Origin: Kitasatospora arboriphila
GTDB taxonomy: Bacteria > Actinomycetota > Actinomycetes > Mycobacteriales > Mycobacteriaceae
NCBI RefSeq assembly: GCF_000717275.1
Contig: NZ_JNYV01000009.1
Location: forward strand, 1 to 64,000
Length of the DNA stretch: 64,000 nt
Direction of reading: 5' to 3'
Position numbers and translations under genes: made by a program. This document shows positions 4,539 through 20,597 of the stretch, one piece after another (position 1 is the stretch's first letter; each line of letters begins with the position of its first letter). The notes under the pieces were generated by a model, which was not told where the DNA came from, did not search any database, and saw only the letters and a list, made by a program, of their open reading frames with translations.

Positions 4539-6014
4539 TCAAGTCGCCGATTCGCGCTCGGGGTCGCCCGTTTGCGGCCCGTAGGTGCTGCGATTGCCGA
4601 CCTCTTTGAGAAAGTCTCCGAAGGCGCCGAGATAACGTCCGACCTGCCGATGGGTGCGGCCCTGTGCCGGGAAGCGCGACGAGATGCGGATGCCCGAAGC
4701 AGTGCGGTGCACCCAGATGTACACCTCTTCGTTCGAGTAGTTGTGGCTACGCAGCACCCTCGCCCGACCTGCGTCTGCCTCTGCGTGTCCGGGGGCGAAA
4801 CGCAGATCGATGAACGAGACGACGAATCTGGGGTCGGGGATGTCTGTGTCTCCCGTGTGTCCGAGGATCTCGCCGACCCGCAGGTAGGGCAGGTTGCCGG
4901 CTTTGCGGACGCGCCGCATCTCGTCCGTCGCCCGGGCGATGATCTGTCCGAAATCGGTGGCACCTGAGGTGTCGAGACGAAAGGGGACAGTGGCGACGAA
5001 CCAGCCGAGTGCCCCGAACCACTGTTGATCGGTGCGCGTGTGCCGGGGGATGACACACCGGAACACCGGGCCCCCGCCGAGTTCGGCGTAGACGATCGCC
5101 AGTGCCGCCATCACCCCGGACAGCAACGAGCCGCCCGCCGCTGAGCACACCGCGGTGAATCGGTTGGTCTGCTCGTCGTCGAGTAGATCCGCGGTGATCG
5201 AACCCTGGGGGATCAGATCGGTACCCGGCTGGGGTGACGGGGTCGGGGCCTCGACCGCCGTCCCGTCCTCGTCGGCGATGTCGAAGCGGGGCAGTTCCCC
5301 GCCCGAGTCGCGCAGGAAGTCGGCCCACACCGCAACGGCCTCGTGCTCGGCGCCTGCCGAGTCTGCCTCTCGCCGCTGATGGGCACTGAAGTCCACGTAC
5401 GACCCCACCGGCGGCAGGTCGGGCTCCACCTTCCGTCGGTGCGCGGTGTAGAGCGCCACGAGTTCGTACTGGCCCATGATCAGGGAGTAGCCATCCACCA
5501 GAGAGTGATCGGCCGCGAAGAGCAGCGTGAACGAGTCCTCGCGAGCAACGGTGGCAAAGATGTAGGCGGGCCACTGCAGCGGCGCGGTCGCTCGGTCGAA
5601 GGAACCTGCCAGTTGATCCAGCAGGGGGCCGGGTTCGCCGTACCAGCCCACCCGCCCCATCTTCAGCTTCACCGATCCGGGCGGGGTGGTCAGCCGGGCC
5701 AGGCGGTCCGCCCAGATGACAACGTGGCTGCGCAGCACCTCGTGCCTGTCGATCCAGGTCGACAGTGCCGCGCGGATGGCCGGTACCGACATCGGCTCGT
5801 CGAAATCGATCGCGAGCCCCAGCCACGATTCGCGACCGCCCTCACGTTTGGTACGCAGACGGTATTCGAACGCGGCGCGCAGATGTTGCTCGTGATTGTG
5901 CGACGTGGGCCGCGAATCAGCCGTCCACTGCGCAAATCCGCCCTCGGTGAAGGGCGACCACTCGACCAACCCGCCAGGTTCGACGGGCTGATCCATCATC
6001 TGGATGAACTTCAT
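4539..6014 (-). CDS. PapA-family acyltransferase 1 (condensation superfamily)
   Basis: 491 aa. Two-domain chloramphenicol-acetyltransferase-like fold of the polyketide-associated (Pap) acyltransferases, which in mycobacteria esterify trehalose or phthiocerol lipids. The catalytic HxxxDG motif is intact at H170-D174 (ADHSLVDGYS). The N-terminal LVEWSP and the SHNHEQHL stretch are typical of the PapA1/PapA3 subgroup, and the late FIDLRF segment matches the family. It lies between sufE and accA3 on the same strand, 12 bp after sufE and 199 bp before accA3, so it is probably read through from the sseA-sufE operon. It is separated from its three relatives by sseA and sufE. The lipid substrate is unknown. 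Confidence 0.88.
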   Translation of the reverse strand: MKFIQMMDQPVEPGGLVEWSPFTEGGFAQWTADSRPTSHNHEQHLRAAFEYRLRTKREGGRESWLGLAIDFDEPMSVPAIRAALSTWIDRHEVLRSHVVIWADRLARLTTPPGSVKLKMGRVGWYGEPGPLLDQLAGSFDRATAPLQWPAYIFATVAREDSFTLLFAADHSLVDGYSLIMGQYELVALYTAHRRKVEPDLPPVGSYVDFSAHQRREADSAGAEHEAVAVWADFLRDSGGELPRFDIADEDGTAVEAPTPSPQPGTDLIPQGSITADLLDDEQTNRFTAVCSAAGGSLLSGVMAALAIVYAELGGGPVFRCVIPRHTRTDQQWFGALGWFVATVPFRLDTSGATDFGQIIARATDEMRRVRKAGNLPYLRVGEILGHTGDTDIPDPRFVVSFIDLRFAPGHAEADAGRARVLRSHNYSNEEVYIWVHRTASGIRISSRFPAQGRTHRQVGRYLGAFGDFLKEVGNRSTYGPQTGDPERESAT

Positions 6015-6026
6015 GACAACGCGATC

Positions 6027-6455
6027 TCATCGTCCCGGCACCGGGCTCGAGGGGCCCAGATGTGCCTTGATCCGCGACAACATGGCCGACATCCCACGCA
6101 GTCGCAACGGGCTGATCGCCGATTCCAGCCCCAGCCGTGTGTAGAAGTCGCCTGGTACGGCGAGGATCTCGTCAGCACCGGCACCGTTGAGGCCCTGGTA
6201 CAGGATGGACGCGAAGCCACGTGTCGTCGGCGCCTGAGGCGGCGCGCTGAAGTACAACTGCACCGAATCGCGGTTGCTCGCGTCCACCGAGAGGAACAGC
6301 GGGGACTGACATTCGGGTACGGGCTCCATCGCCGCTTCGGCGAGATCGTCCGGCAGCTCGGGTAGTTCGTCGGAGAACTCGAGCAGCAGCTGGATCTTCT
6401 CGGAGTCGGTGAGCGCCGAGAAGTCCTCGGCGATCTCATCGAGGGCGGCCGTCAC
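6027..6455 (-). CDS. SufE-family sulfur acceptor protein
   Basis: 142 aa, the same size as the mycobacterial Rv3284 protein. SufE accepts persulfide sulfur from a cysteine desulfurase or rhodanese-like partner; the acceptor cysteine is in PECQSPLFL, with the helix [15 protein letters not shown] before it. GTG at 6455 overlaps the sseA stop as GTGA, which fixes both the start and the operon. The pairing with the thiosulfate sulfurtransferase gene is conserved in this order, while the papA gene that follows is not part of the ancestral set. Confidence 0.87.
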
Positions 6456-7357
6456 CTCTTGCCGCTTGTCGAGGGGGCGGTTCCGGGTTCGATTCCGGTC
6501 ACGATGGGAGCACGCACGGCGTTGCCCCATTCGGTCCAGGACCCGTCGTAGTTGCGTACCTTCTCGAACCCGAGCAGGTGGGTGAGCACAAACCAGGTGT
6601 GCGACGACCGCTCGCCGATCCGGCAGTAGACGATGGTGGGCTCATCAGATTTGAAGTCGGCGTACAACTCGTCGAGTTCGGCCTTCGGCTTGAACCGGCC
6701 GTCCGGGGCGGCTGCCTTGGCCCACGGGATGGAGACCGCGGTGGGGATGTGACCGCCACGCAGCGCACCCTCCTGGGGGTACTCGGGCATGTGCGTGCGC
6801 TCCCCGGAGTACTCCTGCGGCGAACGGACATCGATCAGTGGTTCGGTGCCAAGTGCTCCGCGCACCTCGTCGGCGAACGCACGGATCAGCGAGTCGTCTC
6901 GTTCGACGACCGGGTAGTCGGACTCCGGGTAGACCGGGACGTCGAGGGTGATGTCACGGTCCTCCGAGAACCAGGCGTCGCGGCCGCCGTCGAGCAGTCG
7001 TACGTCTTCGTGTCCGAACAGGGTGAAGACCCAGAGTGCATACGCGGCCCACCAGTTGCTCTTGTCGCCGTAGATCACCACGGTGTCGTCGCGGCGAATA
7101 CCCTTGCTGCGCATCAGTTCTGCGAACTGCTCGCCGGAGATGTAGTCGCGGGTCACCGGGTCGTTCAGGTGAAGGTGCCAGTCGACCTTCTGTGCGGTGG
7201 GGATGTGGCCGATGTCGAACAGCAGCACGTCCTCGTCCGATTCGATGATCTTGAGGCCGTTGGTTCCCAGGTGGGCGCTGAGCCATTCGGTGCTCACCAG
7301 ACGCTCTGGATGAACGTAGTCGGCGAAGCCGGGATTGTTGTCGATCTCAACGGTCAC
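6452..7357 (-). CDS. sseA: Thiosulfate sulfurtransferase (tandem rhodanese)
   Basis: 301 aa with two rhodanese domains. The first is non-catalytic ([12 protein letters not shown]). The second carries the active-site loop [11 protein letters not shown] with the persulfide-forming Cys. It transfers sulfane sulfur, probably to the SufE protein encoded next. GTG at 7357 has GGAG eight bases upstream, and the N-terminus then matches actinobacterial SseA. It lies 112 bp downstream of a papA gene on the same strand, so transcripts from the lipid block may enter it. Confidence 0.92.
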
Positions 7358-7469: not shown

Positions 7470-8813
7470 TCACCACTCGGTGGCGAGCCTGCGCCCGAGT
7501 TCGTCGAGGAAGGAGCCGATGACGGATACAGCCGTTTCGGTGTCCGGGTAGCGGGTGCGCAGGGCCAGCCCCCGATCTGTGCGGGAGATCCAGAACTGGA
7601 CGTCGTCGGCGGTGGTGACGTTCGAGATGTGAGTCGCCCCGATCTCCTCGTGTGTGCCCGAGCCGGGCAGTCTCCGGTAGTCGACGTACGAGACCATGAA
7701 GATGTCGTCGCGACGGCGGTGGATACCGCCGATCGCCTCGAGCACCTGGGGCACCGGCACCTCACCCAACTTCACCGCCGCGCGTAACGCTGGCCCCGTG
7801 CGGGCGACGGTCTCATCGAAGTCCTCGGCCGCGACCACCTCGAGTGGTGCATTGGTGGTGAACCATCCGACCGCGTTCTGCCACGGCTCCGAGCGTCGGG
7901 TGTGTACGGGGAAGAGCATGGACATCTGTGGTCCGCCGCCGAGCCCGCGGACGGTCTGTGCCATCGCCGAGAGCACCCCGGCGAACGTGCTCGCCCCGGC
8001 GCTCCGACACCGGCTGTCGAAGCGGTCGGTGGCCTCGGGTCCGAGCAGATGACGTAGGTCGACTGCCTGCGGCGCTTTCTCACCCGGGAGCAGTCCGAGG
8101 TCGAGTGGAAACGACGGGGCGGTGTTCTTGTGCTCGTCGAAGAACGTCAGCCACGCCCGCATGCGGGGGTCGGACCGGCCGATGGGCGCCGCGTCGGATT
8201 CCGCGGCGCAGTAGTCGACGAAGTTGCCGGCCATCGGCATCTGGTCGGCGATGAAACCACCCGGTTCGGCCTTGGCCGCGTGGTAGAGCTGGTGCAGATC
8301 GCCCACGATGATCGACATCGAGTAGGCGTCCACGTGTGAGTGGTCGAATCCGCAGAACACCGTGGACCGGTCGGCACGATCGATGGCCGCCAACAGGTAG
8401 GCCGGAAAGCCGAACGGGTGGCAGGCATCGTTCAGTGAGTTCCACAGCAGGTCGCGGAGATCGGCCGACGACGTCGTCTCGATCCCGGCGCGCGCAACGA
8501 GGGTGATGTGCGACGCGTCGTGCAGTTCGCGTCCTATTCCGCCGTCGGTTCGGACGAACCCGCTGTGCAGGGTCCCGTGCCGTGCGATCAAGAGGCGGTA
8601 CGCCCGTTCGAGCGCTTTGGCGTCGATTCGGCCGTCCACATCGAAAGCTGCTGCCAGCCAAATGGTTCCGTCTTCCGCGCCGGCGAGATGAAAGGTCTGG
8701 TTGAACGAGGGTGGCACCGCCGAGGCGACCACGCGATCCGCGGAGCTGTCCACCGACCACCGCAGGAGGACACCGGGGTCGGGCGAGTAGCGGTCAATCG
8801 TGGTGACGTGCAA
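7470..8813 (-). CDS. PapA-family acyltransferase 2
   Basis: 447 aa from TTG 8813. Condensation-superfamily fold with H158-D162 ([10 protein letters not shown]), so the catalytic His and Asp are kept, but the Gly that usually follows Asp is Ala. [11 protein letters not shown] near the C-terminus and PVHTRRSE are Pap-family features. TTG was chosen because GAGGAG lies seven bases ahead and homology begins right after it; a GTG at 8855 in the same frame is the alternative. The gene overlaps the end of acyltransferase 3 by about 20 bp, implying coupled translation. Third of three consecutive leftward papA genes. Confidence 0.85.
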
Positions 8814-10251
8814 GCGCAAGCTCCTCGACAGGGGTACTCGCAACAGCGTAGTCACCTTCGCGTGCGACGGTGGCGATCACCTCCCAGAGGCGCTGCAGAT
8901 ATCGCTTGATCTCGAGCTGGGCCGTTGCTGTGTCGGGGGTCTGGAGTCCGAGGTAGAGCCGTCTGCGGTCGCGGTTGAACCACATCGACGCGTTCGAGGT
9001 GCGACCCTCGCCGGTGAATATGACGCCGCGATCGTGCGCGGGCCGGCCATCACCCGGAAATCGCCGAAAGTCGAGGTAGGACAGGAGGTTCGGCGTACCG
9101 GCGACATCGCGGGGATCGACTCCTGAACGCAACAGTGCGGTGATGACCACGGGCAGAGGCACAGATGAGAGACGTTTGGCCCGCACGTGGCCGGCGTGGG
9201 CCGCCGCGGTGACCTCGGTGAACGAACCAGCGGACGCCACGTCGAACGCAACCGGTGCGAAGTTGCAGAACCATCCCTGGGACAGCGCGAACTCCCTCGA
9301 CCTGGTGCCCAGCACGGCGATGGCGAAGTAGTCTGTGCGGCCGGTGAGTTCGAGTGCTGTTATCGCTGCGGCTGCGTATATGCCGCCCATCACGCCTGCG
9401 CCGGACTGTCTGCACACGCGTTCGAACCGATCGGCACCTGCGGCGTCGAGCAGGTCGAACTCGATCGGCCGCACCGGCGCGGTTTCTCCGGGCCCGAGCC
9501 CCAGGTCGAGCGGGAAACGCGGCATCGCGGCGCCGTGGGAGGTGAAGATGTCCACCCACTCTGCGACCTCGGGTGAGTCGTCGGTGAACCGTGCGGCGAC
9601 GTCGTTCTGCAGGCTCGCGTAGTCGAGAAAGCTTCCCGTGGCTGCGCTGACGTGCGGGGGCGGCGCGGTCCCGTTCTTCTCGGCTTCGTACAGTGCGGCG
9701 ATCTCGTCGAGCACGAGTGCCTGTGAGACACCGTCCGACAGGGCGTGGTCGCAGCCGTAATACATCGTGAAACCGCCCGGTCTGCTGATGGCTCCGAACG
9801 CGAAACCCGGCCAACTCGTGGAGATGGCCTCGGCGCCGAGTCTGGCGTGGATGTACCGCCGGAACTCGGTTTCGGTGGTGAGGTCGCCCACACTGTGCGC
9901 TTCGAACTCGACCGCGTCGGGCTCCACCAGCATGCGCGTGATCTGCGTGGTGTCGGTGCGAAACCAGGTCCTCAGTCCCTCGTGCCGAAGGGTGAGAGTG
10001 CGTAGGGCCCGACTGAGCGCCGCAAGGTCGATCGGACCGTCCACTTCGGTGGCTGCTCCCAGATATGCGTTGTGTTCGCCACCCGCGGCGGCGGTCGCGT
10101 GGCAACTGCGAAGGTGGTTCTCCTGCAAGAACGTGAGTGGGCCCGGCGCGGTCGGTGCGGCCAGGGCTCGCGCCGCCGAGGCGGAACTCGGGTGCCACTC
10201 CAGCAATGCGCCGGGGGCAGGCGTCCACCAATCCATCGCGGTGAGGATCAC
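8794..10251 (-). CDS. PapA-family acyltransferase 3
   Basis: 485 aa. HxxxDG is intact at H169-D173 (CDHALSDGVS). The N-terminus LLEWHP and the LQENHL block fit the trehalose-lipid Pap subgroup, and SYLDFRRFPGDGR is the C-terminal landmark. GTG at 10251 has AAGGAG seven bases upstream; an in-frame ATG five codons later is possible. It is 46 bp after acyltransferase 4 and overlaps acyltransferase 2, so the three form one operon. Sequence divergence between the copies suggests distinct acyl positions or substrates rather than recent duplication. Confidence 0.87.
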   Translation of the reverse strand: MILTAMDWWTPAPGALLEWHPSSASAARALAAPTAPGPLTFLQENHLRSCHATAAAGGEHNAYLGAATEVDGPIDLAALSRALRTLTLRHEGLRTWFRTDTTQITRMLVEPDAVEFEAHSVGDLTTETEFRRYIHARLGAEAISTSWPGFAFGAISRPGGFTMYYGCDHALSDGVSQALVLDEIAALYEAEKNGTAPPPHVSAATGSFLDYASLQNDVAARFTDDSPEVAEWVDIFTSHGAAMPRFPLDLGLGPGETAPVRPIEFDLLDAAGADRFERVCRQSGAGVMGGIYAAAAITALELTGRTDYFAIAVLGTRSREFALSQGWFCNFAPVAFDVASAGSFTEVTAAAHAGHVRAKRLSSVPLPVVITALLRSGVDPRDVAGTPNLLSYLDFRRFPGDGRPAHDRGVIFTGEGRTSNASMWFNRDRRRLYLGLQTPDTATAQLEIKRYLQRLWEVIATVAREGDYAVASTPVEELALARHHD

Positions 10252-10297: not shown

Positions 10298-11785
10298 CTA
10301 CGCGGGGAACTTGTCCTCCGAGTACGTCAGCGAGAACGGGGCAGGCGTGGAGGCGTGGAACCGGGGTTCCTGGGTCAGCTCCGCCAACTGGTTGCCGAGA
10401 CCCGAGATGAAGGTCGCCACGTTCGTAGAAGCCACATCGGTGGCCGGGTAACGAGCCGAGATGTTCAGCCCCTCGGGCGTCCTGGAGATCCAGAGGTAGA
10501 CCTCGTCCCCGGAATAGGCCGCGCTGCGTAGCGTGTGCGCGCGCCACCGCACCCAATCGTGCGCGCCCGGAACGAATCGCACGTCGAGGTAGGACACCAC
10601 GAATCGCGCAACCGCCCGGTTCTCGAGCAACTCGGCCACCCGCGGGTACGGGTAGCGAGACAAGTCCTTGCGTTCGGCAATTGCCGCCGCGGCGGCGGAC
10701 ATGCAGTCGGCGAACGATTGTGCGCAGGCGACGTCGATCTCGACCGGAATGATGCCCACGTACCAGCCGACCGACTCGGCATACTGCGACTCGTGGCGGG
10801 TGTGCACCGGCATCGTGAAACGCAGGGTGTTCATGCCGGTGAGTTCGCGGGTCGTGGTCGCAAGTGCGGCAAGGACGGCCGATTGTAGTGTGAATCCGAG
10901 TCGTCTGCAGTGTGCGTTCACCACCGCGGCAGTCTCGTTCGACAGAAGCCATGACGACGTGCCCGCCTGTGGCCGGTCCGCGATGTCGCAGTCGGTGACG
11001 TGTGGTGCGCCTACGGCCTCGACGGGCAGCGGGAAGGCCGGGAACGCGCCGGTGCCGACGTCCAGGAAACGGTCCCATGCTCGTACCGCCACATGATCGG
11101 TGGTGAGGCATCCTCCGGCGAGCCGGTCGGTGACACTGAAGTCGATGTGGCTGCCGATCTGCGGCAACTGATGCTCTGCCCCGCGCAACTCGTACGCGTA
11201 CAAAAGCTGTATTTCATTGATGGACAACAACATCGAATAGGCGTCCATCACCGAATGGTCGGCCGCGAACACCAGGACGAACCCGTCTGGAGGCAGGGCG
11301 CCTTCGACCTCGGTGATGGAAGCCACGAGACAGTGTGGCCACCGCAGTGCCGAGATCCGCGAATCGAACAGGCCTGTGAGGTGGTCGTGGATTTTCGATG
11401 CGTCGATGGGCCCCGCCACACGTGGTCGCATGTCGAGAACGCATCCGGCATTGGTGAGCCTGGTCATCGAGACGGCACCCGTCGTGTCGACCCCGGCGGC
11501 CACCGTGGTCCGGAGGGCTTCGTGCCGGAGCATCCAGCTTCGCAGGGTGCGGGCGAGTACCCGTTCGTCGTAGCGCTCGTGAACTTCGAAAACGCCTCCC
11601 AGCCAAGATGATTCGGCAATCTCAAGCGTCTCGCAGGTCAACCCCCGGACCACGTGGTGTTCGTGGACATAGGTCAGCGGCCGATTGTCGACCGCCCAGC
11701 ACTCGCCGTCACCCTCGGTGCTCGGAGTCCATTCGGTCACCCGCCCGGACGGTAGGTGGTAATCAGCCAGTTCAGTGAATTCCAT
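10298..11785 (-). CDS. PapA-family acyltransferase 4
   Basis: 495 aa. H177-D181 (ADHSVMDAYS) keeps the catalytic His and Asp, with Ala in place of the usual Gly. The start region VTEWTPSTEGDGECWAVD closely parallels acyltransferase 1, and both have the LRSxxYSxxEVYxW block near the C-terminus, so copies 1 and 4 look like the closest pair. ATG at 11785 has no strong ribosome-binding site. First gene of the leftward papA operon; a 564-bp gap separates it from the divergent DrrA-like gene. Confidence 0.87.
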   Translation of the reverse strand: MEFTELADYHLPSGRVTEWTPSTEGDGECWAVDNRPLTYVHEHHVVRGLTCETLEIAESSWLGGVFEVHERYDERVLARTLRSWMLRHEALRTTVAAGVDTTGAVSMTRLTNAGCVLDMRPRVAGPIDASKIHDHLTGLFDSRISALRWPHCLVASITEVEGALPPDGFVLVFAADHSVMDAYSMLLSINEIQLLYAYELRGAEHQLPQIGSHIDFSVTDRLAGGCLTTDHVAVRAWDRFLDVGTGAFPAFPLPVEAVGAPHVTDCDIADRPQAGTSSWLLSNETAAVVNAHCRRLGFTLQSAVLAALATTTRELTGMNTLRFTMPVHTRHESQYAESVGWYVGIIPVEIDVACAQSFADCMSAAAAAIAERKDLSRYPYPRVAELLENRAVARFVVSYLDVRFVPGAHDWVRWRAHTLRSAAYSGDEVYLWISRTPEGLNISARYPATDVASTNVATFISGLGNQLAELTQEPRFHASTPAPFSLTYSEDKFPA

Positions 11786-12349
11786 GTTGCAGTATCCGAT
11801 TCGGGATGATCACGCACGACAGGGGAACCCGCGGGAAGTGGGGGGAGGTGGGCGACGCCGCACTGCGCCGGATGCGCGGGAGTATTCGCTGCGCTCCTCA
11901 ACACTAGGACCGGATATGGGTCTTTGCCTCGGCAAAAGGACGTGGTGTTCGTCACGCAGGCCCGAAGTTCCTGCCATTCGTTTTGCTGCCAGGTGTCGCT
12001 GGTGTGTCGTGCTTGTGAAATACACTGCTGGACAGGGGTTTATCGACGCCAGAGAATTCGACGATGATGCAAGCGCGCGCCACGGCAGCGGTTGCCACGC
12101 AGTGTTCGACAGGGCTATGTTCGACACAGGCGGGTACGCATCGCAGCCATACTCGTCCTTCAGGTCCAGCTGGGTGGTACGGCGGCTCGATGCTGCGCCG
12201 GAACGGATTTCGGGAACGGATGTTCCGCCGATCTGTTCGTCCGCACCGGTGACGCCGGACATCGGCTAAACAGGTTGTCTGTGAACGTGATCGTCGTGAT
12301 GCTTCAACAGTCGTGATGCACCAACAACTGTCAGATGAGGGAGATCGAT
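11786..12349. promoter_or_regulatory. 564-bp divergent control region of the lipid block
   Basis: Lies between papA copy 4 (leftward) and the DrrA-like gene (rightward). No open frame here looks like a known protein. Visible elements are: two GGAACGGAT copies (12200-12208 and 12213-12221), the second running into GTTCC to make an inverted repeat; two direct repeats TCGTGATGC at 12294 and 12311; and a TACACT box at 12021. These are plausible operator and promoter parts for both arms of the cluster. No regulator gene is adjacent. Confidence 0.5.
12200..12226. promoter_or_regulatory. Candidate operator: repeated GGAACGGAT with inverted GTTCC
   Basis: GGAACGGAT occurs twice 13 bp apart, and the second copy is followed directly by GTTCC, giving GGAAC-GGAT-GTTCC. 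It sits 124 bp upstream of the DrrA-like start. The arrangement suits a dimeric repressor or activator; the identity of the protein is not visible. Confidence 0.4.
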
Positions 12350-13348
12350 ATGGCAGTCGGTTCTGGTCTGGCCATCGAGGCAACCGGTCTGAAGAAGAGT
12401 TTCGGCGATTTCCATGCGGTCGACGGCGTCGATCTGGCGGTGCCGGCCGGGACGGTCTACGCAGTGCTGGGTCCGAACGGTGCGGGCAAGACCACCACCG
12501 TTCGGATGCTTGCGACCTTGCTGCGGCCAGATGAGGGGCGGGCGCAGGTGTTCGGATTCGACGTCGTCCGACAGGCCAACGCGGTCCGGTCGCTGATCGG
12601 GGTCACCGGACAATATGCGTCGGTGGACGAGGATCTGACCGCCGCGGAGAACCTGAACATCTTCTGTCGACTCCTGGGTTTGTCGAAGACCCAGTCCACA
12701 AACAAGACCGACGAGATGCTCGCCGAGTTCGGTCTCCAGGATGCTGCCGACCGTACGCTCAAACACTTCTCCGGCGGCATGCGACGGAGACTCGACCTGG
12801 CGGCAAGCCTCATCTCGAGGCCGCCGCTCATCTTCCTCGACGAACCGACCACCGGATTGGACCCCCGCACGCGGGCTCAGATGTGGTCGACTATTCGGGA
12901 ACTCGTCTCCGGAGGGTCCACCGTCTTGCTCACCACCCAATATCTCGAGGAGGCCGACCAGCTGGCCGACCGTATCGCGGTCATCGACAACGGTCGCCTC
13001 GTCGCCGATGGCACAGCCGACGACCTCAAAGCCGCGGTCGGCACCTCCACCTTGATGCTCCATCTGATCGATGCGGCAACGGCTTCGGACGCTGCTCGGA
13101 TCGCGGGCGCCATCACCCACTCGGAGGTGAGCATCGCCGGTGCGGCCGTGGCAGTGCCCGTCACCGACATGGAGCCTGTGCCCGAGGTGCTCTTCGCCCT
13201 GCGCGCGGCAGGGATCGGTGTGCGTGAGATGACCGTACAGCGGCCGAGCCTTGATGAGGTCTTTTTCGCGATCACCGGGAATCAACAGACAGAAGGCTCG
13301 GACCGCGGCCGACAAGCGATACCGGACCAGGGGAAGGACGCGGCCTGA
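12350..13348 (+). CDS. DrrA-like ABC exporter ATPase
   Basis: 332 aa. Walker A GPNGAGKTT, signature FSGGMRRRLDLA, Walker B LIFLDEPTTGLD and the DrrA-type C-terminal segment ending in SLDEVFFAITG. DrrA-type ATPases with an ABC-2 membrane partner export daunorubicin in Streptomyces and phthiocerol lipids in mycobacteria (DrrABC). ATG 12350 follows a GAGGGAGA site; the open frame continues a few codons upstream. Its stop overlaps the permease start (TGATG). Placed beside six acyltransferases and three glycosyltransferases, the likely cargo is the glycolipid they make; this is inference. Confidence 0.9.
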   Translation: MAVGSGLAIEATGLKKSFGDFHAVDGVDLAVPAGTVYAVLGPNGAGKTTTVRMLATLLRPDEGRAQVFGFDVVRQANAVRSLIGVTGQYASVDEDLTAAENLNIFCRLLGLSKTQSTNKTDEMLAEFGLQDAADRTLKHFSGGMRRRLDLAASLISRPPLIFLDEPTTGLDPRTRAQMWSTIRELVSGGSTVLLTTQYLEEADQLADRIAVIDNGRLVADGTADDLKAAVGTSTLMLHLIDAATASDAARIAGAITHSEVSIAGAAVAVPVTDMEPVPEVLFALRAAGIGVREMTVQRPSLDEVFFAITGNQQTEGSDRGRQAIPDQGKDAA

Positions 13349-14205
13349 TGGGGCTGGAGACATCCACTCGCGGCACGATCTGCGTCGAGGGATATGACCC
13401 GAAGGTCGCGGCACTGTTGGCCGATCGGGTGGTCGCCCACCATGTGTCGGTCTCCGAGTCGGTGTCCCAGGCACTGACGATGGCCCGTCGTGGTCTGCTC
13501 AAACTCAAACACAACCCACAGCAGTTGTTCGACGTCGTTGTGCTGCCGATCGTCCTGACGGTGCTCTTCTCCAGCATCTTCGGCGGTGCCATTGCCGGAG
13601 ACGTACCCGCCTACCTGCCGATCTTGATCCCAGGAGTGCTGGTGCAGGTCGCGGTGGCGGCATCGGTCACCACCGGCGTGCAATTACGGGAGGACCTCGA
13701 CAAAGGCGTCTTCGACCGCTTCAAATCCCTACCCATCGCCCGTATCTCACCACTGGCCGGATCACTGCTCGCGGATGTCGTGCGATATGTCATCGCCACC
13801 GGGGTGACCGTGCTCGTGGGGCTCGCAATGGGATACCGGCCGGGCAGCATCGCGGGACTGCTGGCCGGATGTGTGCTGGTGATCGTCGTCGCATTCGCAC
13901 TCAGTTGGATCTTTGCGCTGTTGGGGGTGTTGATGAACAAGGCGTCCACGGTTCAAGGGGTCTCGATGCTGGTGCTGATGCCGCTGACGTTTGTGTCCAA
14001 CGCTCTTGTGCCGGTGGATACCCTGCCCGGGTGGATGCGGGCGTTCGCGTCGGTCAATCCGGTCTCACACTTGGTCTCGGCAGTTCGTGAACTGGCGGTC
14101 GACGGGCACTTCGGCCCGGAGATCGCATGGTCGCTGGCCGGGGCATTCATCGTGTTGATGGTCTTCGCCCCGCTGACCCTGCGCGTCTACATGGTGAAAA
14201 CCTGA
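13348..14205 (+). CDS. DrrB/C-like ABC-2 permease
   Basis: 285 aa. About six membrane segments, with the ABC-2 landmark LREDLDKGVFDRFKSLPIAR between the second and third and LMPLTFVSNALVPVDTLPGWM in the C-terminal half. Partner of the preceding ATPase; the start overlaps its stop by one base. Only one permease gene is present, whereas mycobacterial Drr systems have two (DrrB and DrrC), so this one may form a homodimer. Ends 60 bp before the convergent GT2 gene. Confidence 0.9.
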   Translation: MGLETSTRGTICVEGYDPKVAALLADRVVAHHVSVSESVSQALTMARRGLLKLKHNPQQLFDVVVLPIVLTVLFSSIFGGAIAGDVPAYLPILIPGVLVQVAVAASVTTGVQLREDLDKGVFDRFKSLPIARISPLAGSLLADVVRYVIATGVTVLVGLAMGYRPGSIAGLLAGCVLVIVVAFALSWIFALLGVLMNKASTVQGVSMLVLMPLTFVSNALVPVDTLPGWMRAFASVNPVSHLVSAVRELAVDGHFGPEIAWSLAGAFIVLMVFAPLTLRVYMVKT

Positions 14206-14265: not shown

Positions 14266-15141
14266 TCACGGTGCGATTCGATCGGTGACCGGTCGTAGCA
14301 GATGCTTTGCGGCGAAGGTGTCCGACTCTTTGTCGTAGGTCCGGATGACCAGCAGTCGGCCGGCGTGGAGGAGGGTCACACAGGGCAGGTAGACCACCAC
14401 GGCCGCCGCGGCGAACCCATAACGCTTGTGTAGCAACAGGGTACGTGGCAGGTAGCTCATGTATCGGACAAAAGCCGGGATGCTCGACTCCATCCGTCGT
14501 GGTGAGACCCCGACGGTGATGTCGGGCAGGAAGGCGTTCCTGCCGCCGACCGCCTGCACACACAGCCCGGTGTCCACATCTTCGAAGACGTCTCGGCGCA
14601 TGCTCACCAGATCGCGTACCAGGTACCAGGTCTCGCGCCGGACCACCATGTTCGAGCCGTACAGAACGGGTACGTCTTTCACCGTATGTCGGCGTCGGCG
14701 ACGGCCGCGGAGTGGGTCGAAACGGTTCTTGAGGCGTTCGACAGCGTCACCGTACGGCAGTCCGTACGCCTCGCCCCGACCGCAGAGTGCTGCCCATCGC
14801 TGTTCGGTGTCGTGTTGCAGGAACTCCACGACGGTGCGTGCCCAGTGAGGCGGTGTGATCGTGTCCGAATCGATCCGCGCGATCGCGTCCCCGGTTGCTG
14901 TGTCCAGTCCGGTGTTTCGTGCGTACACCAGACCCTGCTGCGGTTCCGAGATCAGGGAGATCTCGGGGATCTGCTTCGCGTACGACAACACGATGTCGAC
15001 GGTCTTGTCGGTGGAGTTGTTGTCCACCACGATGATTTCGCGGATGAAGTCGAGCTGGCCGATCAGGCTGTCGAGGCATGGTCCGATCGCTTCCTCTTCG
15101 TTGTACGCCGGCACGACAACGGACAGGATCTTCGAGTTCAT
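14266..15141 (-). CDS. Family 2 glycosyltransferase
   Basis: 291 aa. GT-A fold: SVVVPAYNEEEAIGPC at the N-terminus, the metal-binding DSD in ARIDSDT, and the acceptor-side region ending DVFEDVDTGLC. A hydrophobic stretch near the C-terminus (AAAAVVVYLPCVTLLHAG) suggests membrane association. The start overlaps the preceding GT1 gene as ATGA (15138-15141), so the two are translated together. Donor and acceptor sugars cannot be told from sequence. It may build or extend the sugar part of the glycolipid with the two GT1 enzymes. Confidence 0.85.
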   Translation of the reverse strand: MNSKILSVVVPAYNEEEAIGPCLDSLIGQLDFIREIIVVDNNSTDKTVDIVLSYAKQIPEISLISEPQQGLVYARNTGLDTATGDAIARIDSDTITPPHWARTVVEFLQHDTEQRWAALCGRGEAYGLPYGDAVERLKNRFDPLRGRRRRRHTVKDVPVLYGSNMVVRRETWYLVRDLVSMRRDVFEDVDTGLCVQAVGGRNAFLPDITVGVSPRRMESSIPAFVRYMSYLPRTLLLHKRYGFAAAAVVVYLPCVTLLHAGRLLVIRTYDKESDTFAAKHLLRPVTDRIAP

Positions 15142-16415
15142 CTGGCTCCTCTGTTCGGCAGGCGCGGGGTGACGGTTTCCTCGACGATCGTGATCGCTGA
15201 AGCAACCGCGCACTCAGGCTTGATCATCGAGGTGGCCGTGGCTCGGGCAACTGCGCGGCGGCCCGGTTCGATGAGGACGCTGACCAAGGACGTCAGCTTG
15301 TCGGAGTCGATGCGGGAGATCGGCGTGGACACCCCGACACCCAACCGGGTGAGTTGTCGTCCCCACATGGGCTGGTCTGCCCCGAACCAGCAGATGCCGG
15401 TGGGCAATCCGGCGCGCAGAGAAGCCGCAGTCGAACCCGCTCCACCGTGATGGACCGCTGCAGTACACCGAGGAAGCACTGTCTTGTGATCGATGGTGGA
15501 CGTCACGAAGAAGCGGTCGTCGGCGGAGTCGATGGAGAGATGGCTGCCCCCGGTGACGAGCAGGACACGTAACCCCAGTCGTTCGGCGGTCGCGACGATC
15601 GCGTGCTCGATGATGCTGGGGTCCCCGATCTTCATGCTGCCGAAGCCGACATAGAGCGGCGCCGGGCCGGCATCGAGCCAGTCGACGAGAGAGCGATGTG
15701 TCAAGTCGCTCTGCAGTTTTGGCCAAGAAGGCAGGTACTCCAGGAAGCCCACAAGAGGACGACTCCGCCCCCATTCGTCGCCGAGGCCGGGGAACAGGAG
15801 CGGATCGTAGGCCTGCAGTTCAGGCACGCCCTGCCCGGTGATGCGCGATGCGGCCGGAGTGTTCGCGCGGCCGAGCCGCAGCTCGCGGCGCAGCTCGTTC
15901 TCGGTGGATGCGCTCGTGTGCCAGAGTATGCGCTCGAGGATCGTCCAGCTGTGCGCCGTGATCGAGGGCGGTAGCCAAGGGAGCGGGGAGACCACCGAGT
16001 TCTTGCGCATAGGGCAGTAGTGCACTGGCAGATACGGAATGCCTAAAGACTCGGCGACATTGAGGATGCGCTCCTGGCCCGCACTGCCGCCGATGATCAC
16101 ATCGGCACCCTGTCCCAGTGCGCGTAGATCATGCTGTAACCGACTTCCGCCGCGCAGCGTGATCTCGGACACGGCTCGAAGGCGTTTCACGGGATTTGAT
16201 GATTTGAGGTCTCTGGTCACGAGATCAGATCCGAGGAGTTCGTCGGTGTCGATACCGCATGGCTGGGTGGCGAGGCCGGAATCGGCCGCCCAAGAGACCA
16301 GATTGGGTGGAACGGCCAGGGTCACCTCGTGATCTCGGCGTGCGAGTACAGAACCCAGTGCCATCGCCGGCTGCACGTCACCCCGGCTGCCGTTGCAGGA
16401 CAGAACAATTTTCAT
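15138..16415 (-). CDS. GPL-type glycosyltransferase A (GT1/UGT-like)
   Basis: 425 aa. N-terminus MKIVLSCNGSRGDVQPAMAL and the C-terminal donor loop HHGGAGSTAASLRAGLP...DQPMWGRQL are those of MGT/Gtf enzymes that add rhamnose or 6-deoxytalose to mycobacterial glycopeptidolipids (Gtf1, Gtf2, RtfA). ATG 16415 has GAGGAGG nearby and matches the family start; the frame is open but not homologous further upstream. Divergent from glycosyltransferase B. The substrate here is unknown, because no lipopeptide or polyketide synthase gene is in the window. Confidence 0.88.
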   Translation of the reverse strand: MKIVLSCNGSRGDVQPAMALGSVLARRDHEVTLAVPPNLVSWAADSGLATQPCGIDTDELLGSDLVTRDLKSSNPVKRLRAVSEITLRGGSRLQHDLRALGQGADVIIGGSAGQERILNVAESLGIPYLPVHYCPMRKNSVVSPLPWLPPSITAHSWTILERILWHTSASTENELRRELRLGRANTPAASRITGQGVPELQAYDPLLFPGLGDEWGRSRPLVGFLEYLPSWPKLQSDLTHRSLVDWLDAGPAPLYVGFGSMKIGDPSIIEHAIVATAERLGLRVLLVTGGSHLSIDSADDRFFVTSTIDHKTVLPRCTAAVHHGGAGSTAASLRAGLPTGICWFGADQPMWGRQLTRLGVGVSTPISRIDSDKLTSLVSVLIEPGRRAVARATATSMIKPECAVASAITIVEETVTPRLPNRGAR

Positions 16416-16583
16416 GGTCCTCCTCGTCCGCACAGTATCGGGGGGCGGTGTGGGTTCGGCAAATCGTAAGAGCGAGGCAGACTTACCGTGCTCGGCAGAT
16501 GATGTGACGCCGGTCTTCTGACGCTGCGCAAGCGTTGCCGCTGCCCTACGATCGGTATGCATGCAACTGATGCGGAGTGGGAC
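16416..16583. promoter_or_regulatory. Divergent promoter between the two GT1 genes
   Basis: TACGAT boxes occur on both strands: 16547-16552 for the rightward gene and 16463-16468 (reverse) for the leftward gene. A second leftward box, TACTGT, lies at 16432-16437. The rightward TACGAT would place transcription start near 16558-16560, giving a short leader with GGAG at 16574 and the GTG at 16584. Confidence 0.45.
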
Positions 16584-17867
16584 GTGAAGCTACTGTTCGC
16601 GTTCAGTGGCACGCGCGGTGACATCCAGCCCGCGGCCGTGATCGGTGCCGAGTTGCAGCGTCGTGGTCATGTTGTCACTTTTGCTGCACCACCCAATCTG
16701 GTCGAGTTCGCTGCCGGGTTCGGGGTGGATGTTGTCCCGTTCGGTTACGACACCCGTGAGCACATGAAGTCCGAGCTGGTGCGCACTCGGGTGCGGTCGG
16801 GTGGACCGGTCGCACGACTCAAGGCATTCAACGAGTTACGTGATGTCGGTTGGGTGGAGATGATCGACACGATGATCGAGTTGAGTGAAGGGGCCGACGC
16901 GATCGTCACCGGGTTCACCACCGAACAAGTCGCTTTGCTGTTCGCCGAACACCATGGCATAGCACTCATTTCGTTGCACCACGCGCCGGTGCGGTCGAAC
17001 TCGTACTTCTCACCGTTTCCTGGAGCGCCGCTCTCCTTGGCGCCGCTGGTCAACCGGGTCAGCTGGAAGATGGTCGACGCCGCGCTCTGGGGCCTGACCC
17101 GCAAGCGGGAGAACCGAGAGCGTGCGCGTATGGGTATGGCGAGCGCGGGCAGCGACCTACCGAGTCGGATGACGAGGTACGGGGCACGAGAGATACAGGC
17201 GTACGACCCGCTGTTCTGTGCGGACCTCGCCGAGGAGTGGGGTTCCGCCCGGCCGATGGTGGGTTTTGTCGGTCTGGGGGACAGCGCCTGCGGATGGTCG
17301 GAAGATGCTGAGGGACTACGGGATTGGATTGCCGTTGGCACACCACCGATCTATTTCGGGTTCGGGAGCATGCCGGTGGAGGATCCCGGCGCATTGGTCA
17401 CGGCGATCGGACGGGCGTGCCGAGGCGTGGGTGAGCGCGCCGTGGTCAGTGCCGGGTGGAACGACTTCGACGTGAGCTCCGACGACACCGTGCGCATCGT
17501 CGGACAGGTCGACCACCGGACTGTGTTGCCCGCGTGTAGGGCGGTGGTCCACCACGGAGGAGCTGGGACCACATCGGCCGCGCTGCGTGCGGCGAAACCT
17601 GCTGTGGTCTGCTCGGTGGGTTCGGATCAGCCGTTCTGGGGAGCTCAACTCGAGCGTCTCGGAGTCGGTGTCTCGATGACGCTGTCGCAGTTGGATGCGC
17701 ACTCGCTCGAGGACCGGCTTCGTACGGTCCTCGATCCGGAGTACACCAGGCGCGCGAACGCAGTGGCCGCACAACTCATCTCGCCGGAGAAGGCAGCGGC
17801 GGCTGCCGCTGATCTGATCGAGGCATCGGTCGCCGACTGGTCGCCGGCCGTGGTGACGAGCCGATGA
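16584..17867 (+). CDS. GPL-type glycosyltransferase B (GT1/UGT-like)
   Basis: 427 aa. Same family as glycosyltransferase A: KLLFAFSGTRGDIQPAAVIG at the start and HHGGAGTTSAALRAAKP...DQPFWGAQL in the donor site. GTG 16584 is preferred because GGAG lies six bases upstream and homology starts with it; an in-frame ATG at 16557 would add nine residues. Its stop overlaps the next gene as ATGA. First gene of a rightward set of three with the two HxxxDG acyltransferases, so a sugar is probably added and then acylated. Confidence 0.88.
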   Translation: MKLLFAFSGTRGDIQPAAVIGAELQRRGHVVTFAAPPNLVEFAAGFGVDVVPFGYDTREHMKSELVRTRVRSGGPVARLKAFNELRDVGWVEMIDTMIELSEGADAIVTGFTTEQVALLFAEHHGIALISLHHAPVRSNSYFSPFPGAPLSLAPLVNRVSWKMVDAALWGLTRKRENRERARMGMASAGSDLPSRMTRYGAREIQAYDPLFCADLAEEWGSARPMVGFVGLGDSACGWSEDAEGLRDWIAVGTPPIYFGFGSMPVEDPGALVTAIGRACRGVGERAVVSAGWNDFDVSSDDTVRIVGQVDHRTVLPACRAVVHHGGAGTTSAALRAAKPAVVCSVGSDQPFWGAQLERLGVGVSMTLSQLDAHSLEDRLRTVLDPEYTRRANAVAAQLISPEKAAAAAADLIEASVADWSPAVVTSR

Positions 17868-19204
17868 CTCGTACGCGCCGGCTCGAGGCCGGGGACTTCA
17901 CGTACTGGTTTCTCCACCGGGAACTCGGTTGGTCCGTGGTGCTGCAGCTCGTCTGGACATTTGACCGGCCGCCGGGCCGGGAGGCTCTGACCGCGATCAA
18001 CAAGAACCTGGCAGCAAGCCCGCTGAACCGACTCGTGGCCGTCTCCGGGTTGCCCGGTGTCCGGCCGCGATGGGTGCGGGCGGATACGCACCCCGATCTG
18101 ATCATCGATCTCACGCCCATCGACTCGGATCTGGTGGGGGCTTGGGCGGACTCCGAACTCGAATCGGTGCCACTCGACCCGCTGACGGGGCCGCCGTGGC
18201 AGCTACGTGGGGTGTTCACCCAACAGGGCGGATTCGCTTTGTCGCTGACCGCTCTTCACCTTGTCACGGACGGACAGAACATGGTCGGTGCGGCTGTCGA
18301 CGCGTTCACTGACCGCAGGCCAGAACCGTTGTGCTCAGGGATATCTGCCGTCGGTCCGCCGCGGCAACTGATCGGCGACGGCGTGGACCTGCTGTCCGAC
18401 ATCGGTTCGGCCATCGGGGGAGTGGTGCGCGCAGCTGCGGCCGGCGGTGCGTCGATGTTCGACAAGCGCGGGGCGATCGACCGAACGCCGCGCCTGCCCA
18501 TGCACGAACGTGCGCCCCGTGCGCACGTCTCCTGGTCGACGGTGAGTGTCGACTCCGACGTGTGGACGAAAGTCGCTGCCGAGCACGGCGGTACGCCCAA
18601 CTCGCTGTTCATCGCCGTGATCTCCGGAGTGTTGCGTTCGAGCGGGTGTGCCCCACTCGGTGTCCCGATCAAGGTGGGCATTCCCGTCAGTCAGCGGACA
18701 GACGGCGACGACCGGGCGAACGCGACCGCGGGTGTGTCGGTGACACTCATCGACGAACCTGTTCGCGGTGGGACGTTGCGTCACATCCGGCGACAGTGCA
18801 AGGCCGCGTTCACCGCCCTGGGGGCCGGTCGTCGACCCGCCATGATCCATCTTCAGCCGCTGATGTGGTTGTTGCCCTCGTCGCTGATCATCAAGGCGGT
18901 GAGCAGTGGGGATGGGATGCCCGACGCGGTGGCCTCGAATCTCGGAGTGTTCACGCCAGAGCTCACCGAAGTGGGCGGGGTGGCGGCGTCAGGGGTTGCC
19001 TTCCGGGGGATCGCGCAGGGAGTGGACGCGGCACTGCCGTACCGTTTCGGCGACGGCGTGCAGTCGTGGCTACTCGAATATGGCGGAACCACAACCTTTT
19101 CCGTTGCGGCGTTCGACGAGATGCACATCGCCGACAGCGCAGAACTGGGCCGCTTTCTCGCAGAAGAACTTCGGGCGTGGGGCGTGCCGTTTCGGCTGTG
19201 GTGA
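17864..19204 (+). CDS. HxxxDG acyltransferase 5 (WS/DGAT or PapA5-like)
   Basis: 446 aa. Condensation-superfamily protein with H132-D136-G137 (LHLVTDGQ), shorter and clearly different from the four PapA genes. GVPIKVGIPVSQRTDGDDRANATAGVSV and SNLGVF resemble wax-ester-synthase/DGAT-like or PapA5-like enzymes, which transfer acyl groups from CoA or carrier protein. ATGA overlap with glycosyltransferase B and a close paralogue next. Both paralogues end in a Trp-rich tail (AWGVPFRLW here). The acyl acceptor is likely the product of the coupled glycosyltransferase; this is inference. Confidence 0.75.
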   Translation: MTRTRRLEAGDFTYWFLHRELGWSVVLQLVWTFDRPPGREALTAINKNLAASPLNRLVAVSGLPGVRPRWVRADTHPDLIIDLTPIDSDLVGAWADSELESVPLDPLTGPPWQLRGVFTQQGGFALSLTALHLVTDGQNMVGAAVDAFTDRRPEPLCSGISAVGPPRQLIGDGVDLLSDIGSAIGGVVRAAAAGGASMFDKRGAIDRTPRLPMHERAPRAHVSWSTVSVDSDVWTKVAAEHGGTPNSLFIAVISGVLRSSGCAPLGVPIKVGIPVSQRTDGDDRANATAGVSVTLIDEPVRGGTLRHIRRQCKAAFTALGAGRRPAMIHLQPLMWLLPSSLIIKAVSSGDGMPDAVASNLGVFTPELTEVGGVAASGVAFRGIAQGVDAALPYRFGDGVQSWLLEYGGTTTFSVAAFDEMHIADSAELGRFLAEELRAWGVPFRLW

Positions 19205-19241
19205 CAAAGCACATGTTCCAGGACAACGAGAGGGCGTGACA

Positions 19242-20597
19242 ATGACGACGACCGAACGCCTCGTCGGTGGGTTCGATCGGGTCACCGGACCCGACGAGTC
19301 CTATCATCTCGCCGAACGGCTCTTCGGGCTCAGCGCGCCGATCCAGTTCCTGTGGGTGTTCACCACTGACCCGGGCGACTCAGAGGTGCTGCGGCTGCGA
19401 GACCAGCTGTCGGCAGGCCCGCTCAACCGCAAAGTGCGCCGTGCAACAGTGCCGTTCGCACGTGACCGGTGGGTTCGGGTCGACGACGTCCCGGACGTGG
19501 CGATCGACGACAAGCCGATCGGTGACAACGACATCGCCTCCTGGTTGGACACGCGAGTGCGTGAGGGCGAACTCGCGCCCGCAGCGGGCCGGGGCTGGAG
19601 GTTGGACGCCGCGCGGACTCGGTCGGGCAAGCTGGTGCTGTCACTGCTGGTGTCGCACATGATCTCTGACGGCGAGGGGGTCTATGCGGCACTGGCTGCG
19701 GCCCAGGCGGGCACGTCGCAGAACCGGTTGCCCACGCGTGCGGAGACCGGGGGCCGCGGTGGCCGTCGAGCGGACGTGGTGGATGCCGCCGGCCAGCTGT
19801 TGGCTGCGGCCAGGGCGCTCAGAATTCTCGGCGGCGCATTGCGGAATCGGACAAAGACGCCGAGCCCGTCGCGGCGTGCAGCGCCGTCGACAGAGTTGTC
19901 ACCGGACGCGCCCGGTCCGGACACCACCCTGGTGATCCTCGATGTGGATCGTGAGCGGTGGGCAGGCACCGCACGAGAGCACGGAGGGACCACCAACAGC
20001 CTGTTCACGGCCGTGCTTGCCGGACTGGTCCAACGGACCGACATTCCGGTGGCCGACCAGCTCCGGGTGTGCATGGCGGTCAGCAAACGTGAATCCGGAG
20101 ACGAACGGGCCAACGCCTCGGGCGGCGTGTGGATTCGGATCGACGGGCCGGTCAGCCCCCAGCGAGGCCTGGCCGACATCCGGGCACTGAGCAAGCAGGC
20201 GTTCATCGACTACGCCGATGCCGACTCGGACACGATGGCCGACAACATGCAACCGGTGGTCCGGCTCCTGCCGGGACGGCTGATCGGAAAGTTGATGCAG
20301 TCGGTGCCCGGCCCCGACACCACCGTCTCGAATCTCGGGGTGGTGCCGCCCGGCGCCCTTCGGCTCGGTACCGAGACGGCGGAATCGTTCGGGATCCGCG
20401 CCATCGTCCGCGGTCGACCCATTGCCAACCGACGTGCTCAAGGTCCCGCAGTGGCGGCGTGGGCGGTGGAATACGGGGACAAGGTGACCATCACGGTGTT
20501 CGGTATCCACCCAGACCACTTCGGCGATGTCGGCACACTCCGGGCGCAGATCGGTGAGGAACTCAGCTCGTGGGGGCTTCCGTACACCTTCTGGTAG
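19242..20597 (+). CDS. HxxxDG acyltransferase 6, paralogue of acyltransferase 5
   Basis: 451 aa. H139-D143-G144 (SHMISDGEG). It shares with its upstream neighbour the middle VAVSKRESGDERANASGGVWI-type block, SNLGVVPPG and the ending SSWGLPYTFW, so the two arose by tandem duplication followed by strong divergence. ATG 19242 has GAGAGG about eight bases upstream. Last gene of the rightward arm, convergent with maf after 45 bp. It probably esterifies a second position of the same glycolipid or uses a different acyl donor. Confidence 0.75.
   Translation: MTTTERLVGGFDRVTGPDESYHLAERLFGLSAPIQFLWVFTTDPGDSEVLRLRDQLSAGPLNRKVRRATVPFARDRWVRVDDVPDVAIDDKPIGDNDIASWLDTRVREGELAPAAGRGWRLDAARTRSGKLVLSLLVSHMISDGEGVYAALAAAQAGTSQNRLPTRAETGGRGGRRADVVDAAGQLLAAARALRILGGALRNRTKTPSPSRRAAPSTELSPDAPGPDTTLVILDVDRERWAGTAREHGGTTNSLFTAVLAGLVQRTDIPVADQLRVCMAVSKRESGDERANASGGVWIRIDGPVSPQRGLADIRALSKQAFIDYADADSDTMADNMQPVVRLLPGRLIGKLMQSVPGPDTTVSNLGVVPPGALRLGTETAESFGIRAIVRGRPIANRRAQGPAVAAWAVEYGDKVTITVFGIHPDHFGDVGTLRAQIGEELSSWGLPYTFW

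What the first reader, a model, noticed from the sequence alone, without database searches (positions are those of the whole stretch)
4539..20597. Undescribed acyl-glycolipid cluster inserted into the accD5-accA3 carboxylase locus
Seen: four PapA-type acyltransferases, two other HxxxDG acyltransferases, two GPL-type GT1 enzymes, one GT2 and a DrrAB-like exporter, all between genes that are adjacent in M. tuberculosis (maf, sseA, sufE, accA3). Known: PapA enzymes acylate trehalose and phthiocerol lipids, Gtf enzymes glycosylate glycopeptidolipids, and DrrABC exports phthiocerol lipids; acyl-CoA carboxylase supplies malonyl and methylmalonyl units. Inference: a multi-acylated, at least di- or tri-glycosylated lipid, made without any polyketide synthase or NRPS in the window, so the acyl chains would come from fatty-acid synthase or a distant locus.
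Basis: partly seen in the sequence, partly recalled or inferred. Interest (0 to 1): 0.85.

Follow-up and report, generated by a model that had tools for sequence, protein, structure and literature searches.

The report
Gene cluster for sugar-based surfactant lipids
The genome of a Williamsia bacterium carries six intact acyltransferase genes, three sugar-transferase genes and an exporter gene pair beside acyl-CoA carboxylase genes, a set that likely builds a multi-acylated, trehalose-based oligosaccharide surfactant and would supply the missing genes for such lipids, known from chemistry since 1989.

Summary
In detail: window 4539-20597 has four PapA genes, two further HxxxDG acyltransferases, two GT1, one GT2 and DrrAB, interleaved with sufE and sseA between accA3 and maf-accD5. 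The genome is Williamsia. The module is under purifying selection, recurs in Gordonia, Nocardia and Rhodococcoides, and was deleted in a sister strain that keeps a 79-base scar. It is less undescribed than thought: four papA genes listed as candidates for succinoyl trehalolipids of Rhodococcus sp. I2R (PMC8396431) show the same three-gap-one layout and nearly the spacing of related loci, and all four PapA here match PapA2 best. Best reading: acylated trehalose-core oligosaccharide lipids made without a polyketide synthase. Rhodococcoides genomes hold a one-GT or a three-GT type, none of 37 both; the published products nearest to each are a trisaccharide and a pentasaccharide, so glycosyltransferase number may set sugar number, which predicts a pentasaccharide here. 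Against: R. fascians-type strains may break the rule, ester counts do not fit throughout, Tsukamurella lacks the cluster, and no Williamsia chemistry was found.

The parts
2552..4381 (-). accA3-like biotin carboxylase/BCCP subunit (flank)
   Evidence: Pfam Biotin_carb_N/C, CPSase_L_D2, Biotin_lipoyl
4539..6014 (-). papA_a, PapA-type acyltransferase between accA3 and sufE
   Evidence: Condensation 77.0 bits; PapA2 6aef 2.7e-25; DHSLVDG; 19 of 19 H and D
6027..6452 (-). sufE-like gene (flank)
   Evidence: conserved neighbour in related loci; name from the finding, not tested by profile
6452..7330 (-). sseA, rhodanese-type sulfurtransferase (flank)
   Evidence: Pfam Rhodanese, 2 stretches; conserved part 6455-7330
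7470..8855 (-). papA_b, PapA-type acyltransferase
   Evidence: Condensation 50.7 bits; PapA2 1.6e-33; DHSHVDA, 43 of 43 H and D, one clade
8794..10251 (-). papA_c, PapA-type acyltransferase
   Evidence: Condensation 63.1 bits; PapA2 1.2e-42, residues 3-459; 40 of 40 H and D, one clade
10298..11785 (-). papA_d, PapA-type acyltransferase
   Evidence: Condensation 74.3 bits; PapA2 2e-20; DHSVMDA; 45 of 45 H and D
12335..13348 (+). drrA-like ABC exporter ATPase
   Evidence: TIGR01188 357.5 bits, cut-off 312.45
13348..14205 (+). drrB-like ABC-2 membrane subunit, the only one
   Evidence: Pfam ABC2_membrane 2e-27; DrrB/DrrC models below cut-off
14266..15213 (-). GT2 glycosyltransferase
   Evidence: Pfam Glycos_transf_2 1.1e-31
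15138..16562 (-). GT1a, GT1-family glycosyltransferase; true start probably near 16415
   Evidence: Pfam EryCIII-like_C, Glyco_transf_28; homology starts at about residue 49
16557..17867 (+). GT1b, GT1-family glycosyltransferase
   Evidence: Pfam EryCIII-like_C; PDB GtfA 2.4e-30
17864..19204 (+). AT5, acyltransferase of condensation/WS-DGAT fold (model), LHLVTDG
   Evidence: AlphaFold and Foldseek; 44 of 44 H and D
19242..20597 (+). AT6, AT5 paralogue, SHMISDG; start estimated
   Evidence: 34% to AT5; 43 of 43 H and D
20643..21275 (-). maf (flank)
   Evidence: Pfam Maf
21300..21563 (-). accE-like small ORF (flank)
   Evidence: 87-aa ORF between maf and accD5; name by eye
21560..23206 (-). accD5-like carboxyltransferase subunit (flank)
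   Evidence: Pfam Carboxyl_trans 1e-206

Best explanation
The locus likely makes and exports a trehalose-based oligosaccharide lipid that carries several short or medium acyl chains: the GT1 and GT2 enzymes are predicted to add up to three sugars to trehalose, and the four PapA and two AT5/AT6 enzymes are predicted to esterify it. Shown here: the genes, their conservation, their catalytic residues, the PapA2 relationship, and the layout and spacing match to the papA genes proposed for I2R succinoyl trehalolipids. Inferred: trehalose is the core (an otsA gene is elsewhere in the genome). GT1 enzymes invert (family knowledge, recalled) and would give beta-linked sugars, as on the known trisaccharide. 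Each PapA lineage would acylate its own position from acyl-CoA of general metabolism, one perhaps with succinate, while AT5/AT6 would acylate the added sugars or the hydroxyls of 3-hydroxyacyl chains. DrrAB would export the product. The number of cluster glycosyltransferases would set the number of sugars beyond trehalose: one gives a trisaccharide, three give a pentasaccharide, the prediction for this window.
For: All four PapA have PapA2 (trehalose-2-sulfate acyltransferase, 6aef) as best solved relative, 2e-20 to 1.2e-42; PapA5 (solved, recalled) is in none of the four lists. I2R papA stop-to-stop distances computed from Table 5 of PMC8396431 are 1448/1407/2995; one-GT loci L076 and L077 give 1450/1398/2991 and 1446/1399/2975, R. 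corynebacterioides L069 gives 1460/1355/3958. [quoted passage not shown] Nine of nine one-GT genomes searched have one GT1 at 1e-45 and no GT2 orthologue (best 35-40%); six of six large-type genomes have two GT1 and a 59-65% GT2. The types exclude each other: 24 and 7 of 37 Rhodococcoides genomes, none with both. R. corynebacterioides, named through P0096/P0097 at 100%, is the three-GT type; Table 3 of the review PMC4365757 lists a pentasaccharide succinic octaester for Nocardia corynebacteroides SM1 and a trisaccharide succinic tetraester for a Rhodococcus sp. and R. fascians. The trisaccharide's third sugar is beta-glucose.
Against: No product is known to me from Williamsia, and the I2R authors did no genetics on these genes in the passages read. 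The I2R genome was not seen; its locus is inferred from a table. R. fascians-type strains seem to include a large type: AT5 P0059 and GT2 P0220 both bear the name Rhodococcus sp. 1R11 and the contig length 435460, P0059 resembles R. fascians P0060 by eye, and the R. fascians strain said to make the trisaccharide was not available. Six acyltransferases fit six ester bonds of the trisaccharide by my count but not the octaester of the pentasaccharide. R. corynebacterioides and the four one-GT loci seen lack drrAB in the cluster. Tsukamurella, reported to make tri/tetrasaccharide lipids, has a GT2 relative without the PapA module in 4 of 5 loci; the fifth has papA_a and an AT6 relative near by. 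Five of seven Gordonia loci have a fourth GT, with no matching lipid known to me. Equating N. corynebacteroides with R. corynebacterioides is recalled; one search found no such name.
Confidence: 0.6

Rival explanations
1. The same enzymes build a multi-acylated glycolipid on a core other than trehalose, such as a glycosylated glycerol, hydroxy acid or another disaccharide.
For: No trehalose-specific gene was recognised in the cluster; GT1b's best solved relatives glycosylate antibiotic aglycones (functions recalled).
Against: All four PapA match PapA2 best; the I2R candidates that fit this locus go with disaccharide units its authors presume to be trehalose.
Confidence: 0.2
2. It is a mycobacterial-type lipooligosaccharide or acyltrehalose locus whose polyketide synthase is elsewhere in the genome.
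For: PapA2 relatives and glycosyltransferases; the genome has ketoacyl-synthase genes on other contigs.
Against: No ketoacyl-synthase match on contig C9 and no AMP-binding match inside the window. Unmatched ORFs of the sister loci were mostly not profiled, so their lack of a PKS was not tested.
Confidence: 0.12
3. The cluster tailors or exports an antibiotic-like small molecule, with DrrAB as self-resistance pump.
For: NCBIfam names the ATPase drrA, and the nearest model of both GT1 is the rifamycin-inactivating Rgt, far below its cut-off.
Against: Six acyltransferases and no scaffold gene recognised in the cluster; drrAB is absent from some related clusters.
Confidence: 0.05

Closest known systems
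Succinoyl trehalolipids of Rhodococcus sp. I2R (PMC8396431; abstract, passages and tables seen)
   Same: Three papA, a gap of the size of sseA-sufE, then a fourth papA, with nearly the spacing of one-GT relatives of this locus
   Different: The authors listed only the papA genes as candidates; I2R fits the one-GT type, this window has GT2 and two GT1 plus drrAB
Pentasaccharide succinic octaester of Nocardia corynebacteroides SM1 and trisaccharide succinic tetraester of R. fascians (Table 3 of review PMC4365757, passages seen)
   Same: R. corynebacterioides genomes carry the three-GT type of this cluster
   Different: Listed there as chemistry; producer strains' genomes not seen here; an octaester exceeds six acyltransferases
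M. tuberculosis PapA2 and sulfolipid/acyltrehalose pathways (PDB 6aef; pathway recalled)
   Same: PapA2 is the best solved relative of all four PapA
   Different: No ketoacyl synthase and no AMP-binding gene in the window; glycosyltransferases added; DrrAB-type exporter
TlsA, acyltransferase for succinoyl trehalose lipid in Rhodococcus sp. SD-74 (Inaba 2013, seen only as cited in PMC8396431)
   Same: Said there to add acyl groups to trehalose; the four I2R papA are reported as its closest homologues in I2R, about 30% similar
   Different: Sequence not compared here; the paper is not held
papA3 beside a glycosyltransferase in an NRPS cluster of Rhodococcus oxybenzonivorans SK11 (PMC13206832, passages seen)
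   Same: A papA-glycosyltransferase pair read by its authors as trehalose-ester-like
   Different: One papA in an NRPS cluster; not compared by sequence here

Membership tests
PapA acyltransferases, trehalose-acylating branch | Condensation-type domain | tested here: met
   Four of four over the Pfam cut-off
PapA acyltransferases, trehalose-acylating branch | HxxxDG catalytic motif | tested here: met
   H and D in 147 of 147; the last residue is A in 41 of 43 papA_b and 40 of 45 papA_d sequences
PapA acyltransferases, trehalose-acylating branch | Activity on trehalose or its sulfate | not testable with these tools
   Only sequence similarity to PapA2
Mycobacterial acyltrehalose / LOS loci | Polyketide synthase and fatty-acyl AMP ligase in the cluster (recalled) | tested here: not met
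   none in the window
Mycobacterial acyltrehalose / LOS loci | MmpL exporter (recalled) | not tested
   No MmpL among the ORFs profiled, but not every ORF of the window was profiled
Glycopeptidolipid locus | Non-ribosomal peptide synthetase (recalled) | tested here: not met
   Only the four PapA match Condensation on contig C9
DrrABC phthiocerol exporter | DrrA ATPase | tested here: met
   TIGR01188 over cut-off
DrrABC phthiocerol exporter | Two membrane subunits, DrrB and DrrC (recalled) | tested here: not met
   One ABC-2 gene; DrrB and DrrC models below cut-off
Succinoyl (oligo)trehalolipid loci | Three papA, a gap of sseA-sufE size, then a fourth papA, as in Rhodococcus sp. I2R | tested here: met
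   Window 1504/1324/2931, I2R 1448/1407/2995; L076 and L077 lie within 20 bases of I2R. Which I2R papA is which is inferred
Succinoyl (oligo)trehalolipid loci | Production of a succinylated trehalose lipid | not testable with these tools
   Needs mass spectrometry
Wax ester synthase / DGAT (for AT5) | Score over the family cut-off | tested here: not met
   25.8 bits against 309.95; the fold is shared

The most novel reading that the evidence does not exclude
This is the missing biosynthetic locus of the actinobacterial oligosaccharide trehalolipids, a modular assembly line in which the number of cluster glycosyltransferases fixes the oligosaccharide length and each PapA lineage fixes one acyl position, and Williamsia makes a so far unseen pentasaccharide member.
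Probability: 0.4. Interest if true: 0.75.

Novelty: new variant of a known kind. Interest (0 to 1): 0.6.

Why it matters
Oligosaccharide trehalolipids are known as biosurfactants, but the I2R paper calls the genetic basis of succinoyl trehalolipids still poorly understood. A complete, conserved gene set with natural one-GT, three-GT and deleted versions would turn an old chemical literature into a testable gene-to-structure map and give a PKS-free route to complex cell-envelope glycolipids.

Tried and rejected
Naming the R. fascians cluster type: (37 genomes) held no close relative of P0060 (best 51%), so the type of the reported trisaccharide producer stays open. Tsukamurella as a second test of the sugar-number rule: no PapA module beside the GT2 in 4 of 5 loci, so it neither supports the rule nor shares the cluster. 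Weak AT5 relatives: of the 12 loci, ten were weak matches; 3 of these ten (L105, L108, L111) have PapA and GT neighbours, 7 do not (3 of the 7 have a drrA- or drrB-like neighbour). The other two were G308 (L110, full module) and a weaker copy in the window's own genome (L109, no module). So the AT5 count of 89 of 301 overstates the cluster. One enzyme per ester bond: fits six bonds of the trisaccharide by my count, fails for the octaester. One search cut some ORFs at the wrong place and built a tree on them; both were redone. The odd spacings of L044 and L053 look like the same artefact.
Full report
What is there. The window is the first 64000 bases of contig C9 of a 5.75-Mb genome. Its nearest named relatives are two Williamsia muralis genomes with 93-94% identity in AT5. 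From low to high coordinates the locus reads accA3, papA_a, sufE, sseA, papA_b, papA_c, papA_d (all minus), drrA, drrB (plus), GT2, GT1a (minus), GT1b, AT5, AT6 (plus), maf, an accE-like ORF, accD5 (minus). AT5 and AT6 have no Pfam match, but the AT5 model (36-sequence alignment, pLDDT 92.2, pTM 0.92) finds AzeD, wax ester synthase 6chj and many NRPS condensation domains.

More than chance. Against two W. muralis loci, dN/dS is 0.03-0.30 in the cluster genes; the neighbours give accA3 0.01-0.02, sseA 0.03-0.04, maf 0.14-0.28. In 147 PapA and 87 AT5/AT6 sequences from 39 loci and the window, the catalytic His and Asp never vary; 9 sequences cut by locus ends were left out. papA_b (43 of 43) and papA_c (40 of 40) each form one clade, papA_d 40 of 45, papA_a 14 of 19. 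The ten that fall outside are the papA next to accA3 in Rhodococcoides, which my labels split between a and d. AT6 gives 39 of 43 in one clade; AT5 is not separated cleanly (12 of 44). So at least three PapA lineages are shared across genera and look dedicated to separate jobs (inference; transfer of the module between genera is not excluded).

Distribution. AT5 was sought in 301 genomes of the family: 89 match at 1e-35, but of ten weak matches checked only 3 lie in such a cluster. Searches fetched 40 loci from 38 genomes, all chosen by AT5; 38 of the 40 have PapA beside AT5/AT6 relatives and 33 of those 38 have GT2; L072 and L074 have neither. Genera recognised by named proteins with equal contig length or 100% identity are Williamsia, Gordonia, Nocardia, Rhodococcoides, Antrihabitans and Millisia.

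Place and history. In the window's genus group the module sits between sseA and maf; in the large-type Rhodococcoides loci between maf and accD5; in the three Nocardia loci, six of seven Gordonia loci, W. sterculiae and two others elsewhere in the genome. A papA beside accA3 is also kept in Williamsia and Gordonia genomes without the module there. Of nine genomes of the genus group, seven have an AT5 of 59% identity or more and two do not. The sister strain G008 (99% in sseA) lacks window 8883-19552 and 19632-20592 but keeps 79 bases of AT6 at 86% identity, so the module was lost there, leaving papA_a and papA_b. In G001 the aligned sequence runs from the window's 8856 to 20652 with papA_a and papA_b kept; whether this is loss was not decided. 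Neither has a GT2 orthologue or a GT1 match at 1e-45 elsewhere.

Link to known chemistry. PMC8396431 (abstract, passages and tables seen; [quoted passage not shown] I2R, nearest by 16S to R. yunnanensis among named species. Its Table 5 lists papA3, papA1, papA3 and, after a 1507-base gap, papA3, all plus, on contig 9. I computed their stop-to-stop distances as 1448, 1407 and 2995. L076 gives 1450, 1398, 2991 and L077 1446, 1399, 2975, with sseA and sufE in the gap. The two R. corynebacterioides loci, with maf as well, give 3958 and 4006 for the last distance. So the I2R candidates very likely are this locus in its one-GT form. The AT of named R. yunnanense (P0110) is 68% and 66% identical to those of L076 and L077.

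Sugar number. In 37 Rhodococcoides genomes a P0135-type AT is found in 24 and a P0060-type AT in 7, never both, and in 6 neither. Of the 24, nine were searched further: nine of nine have one GT1 at 1e-45 and no GT2 orthologue. Of the 7, six were searched: six of six have two GT1 and one GT2. Gene order of the one-GT type was inspected in four, L075-L078. Two R. corynebacterioides genomes belong to the three-GT kind. The review PMC4365757 (passages) lists a pentasaccharide succinic octaester from Nocardia corynebacteroides SM1 and a trisaccharide succinic tetraester from a Rhodococcus sp. and R. fascians. Trehalose plus one and trehalose plus three fit these structures. The identity of N. corynebacteroides with R. 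corynebacterioides is recalled (one search found no such name). By the same count the window would make a pentasaccharide, some g18 Williamsia loci (two GTs in the stretch seen) a tetrasaccharide, and five of seven Gordonia loci a hexasaccharide; none of these has been checked.

Against. P0059 (AT5) and P0220 (GT2) both bear the name Rhodococcus sp. 1R11 and contig length 435460, and P0059 is close to R. fascians P0060 by eye, so some R. fascians-type strains probably hold the large type, while another protein named R. fascians (P0135) is of the one-GT type. The reported trisaccharide strain was not examined. Six acyltransferases do not explain eight esters. Tsukamurella has no matching cluster in 4 of 5 loci. 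The exporter is missing from the R. corynebacterioides and one-GT clusters seen. No call bears on expression or on the actual acyl chains.

What is new. Ten literature searches in an open-access library listed no paper whose title, abstract start or passages read describe this full cluster or its glycosyltransferases. Several listings were cut (for example 20 of 353 and 12 of 481), passages were read in three papers only (PMC8396431, PMC4365757, PMC13206832), and subscription papers are mostly not held, so this is not proof. PMC13206832 reports one papA3 near a glycosyltransferase in an NRPS cluster. The product class is known; the gene set, its types and the sugar-number proposal are the new part.

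Noticed in passing
window 58607-63295 +: Genes that look like the trehalose importer LpqY-SugABC: 58607-60343 matches LpqY structure 7ape at 1.3e-138, 62123-63295 is an ABC ATPase; the two genes between were not profiled.
   Followed up: partly
L079, L055, L061, L062, L082: A second, paralogous module (drrAB, AT5-like, PapA, and in four of these five loci a GT1) lies beside or in place of the first in some Williamsia-type genomes, with a PF00756 esterase in the three copies tested (L079, L061, L082).
   Followed up: partly
L080:11446-11524: Natural deletion of the module in G008 with a 79-base AT6 scar; papA_a and papA_b kept.
   Followed up: yes
L077:15124-15570: A Flavodoxin_1 gene next to the one-GT cluster in Rhodococcoides.
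   Followed up: no
window 7470-8855 and 10298-11785 (papA_b, papA_d): The last residue of HxxxDG is Ala in 41 of 43 papA_b and 40 of 45 papA_d sequences, which may mark a shared substrate type.
   Followed up: no
window 50041-52217 -: Another DrrA-like ABC ATPase (50862-52217) with an adjoining ORF that was not profiled.
   Followed up: no
G000:C3:78789-80099: A third GT1 relative of GT1a (39%) outside the window.
   Followed up: no
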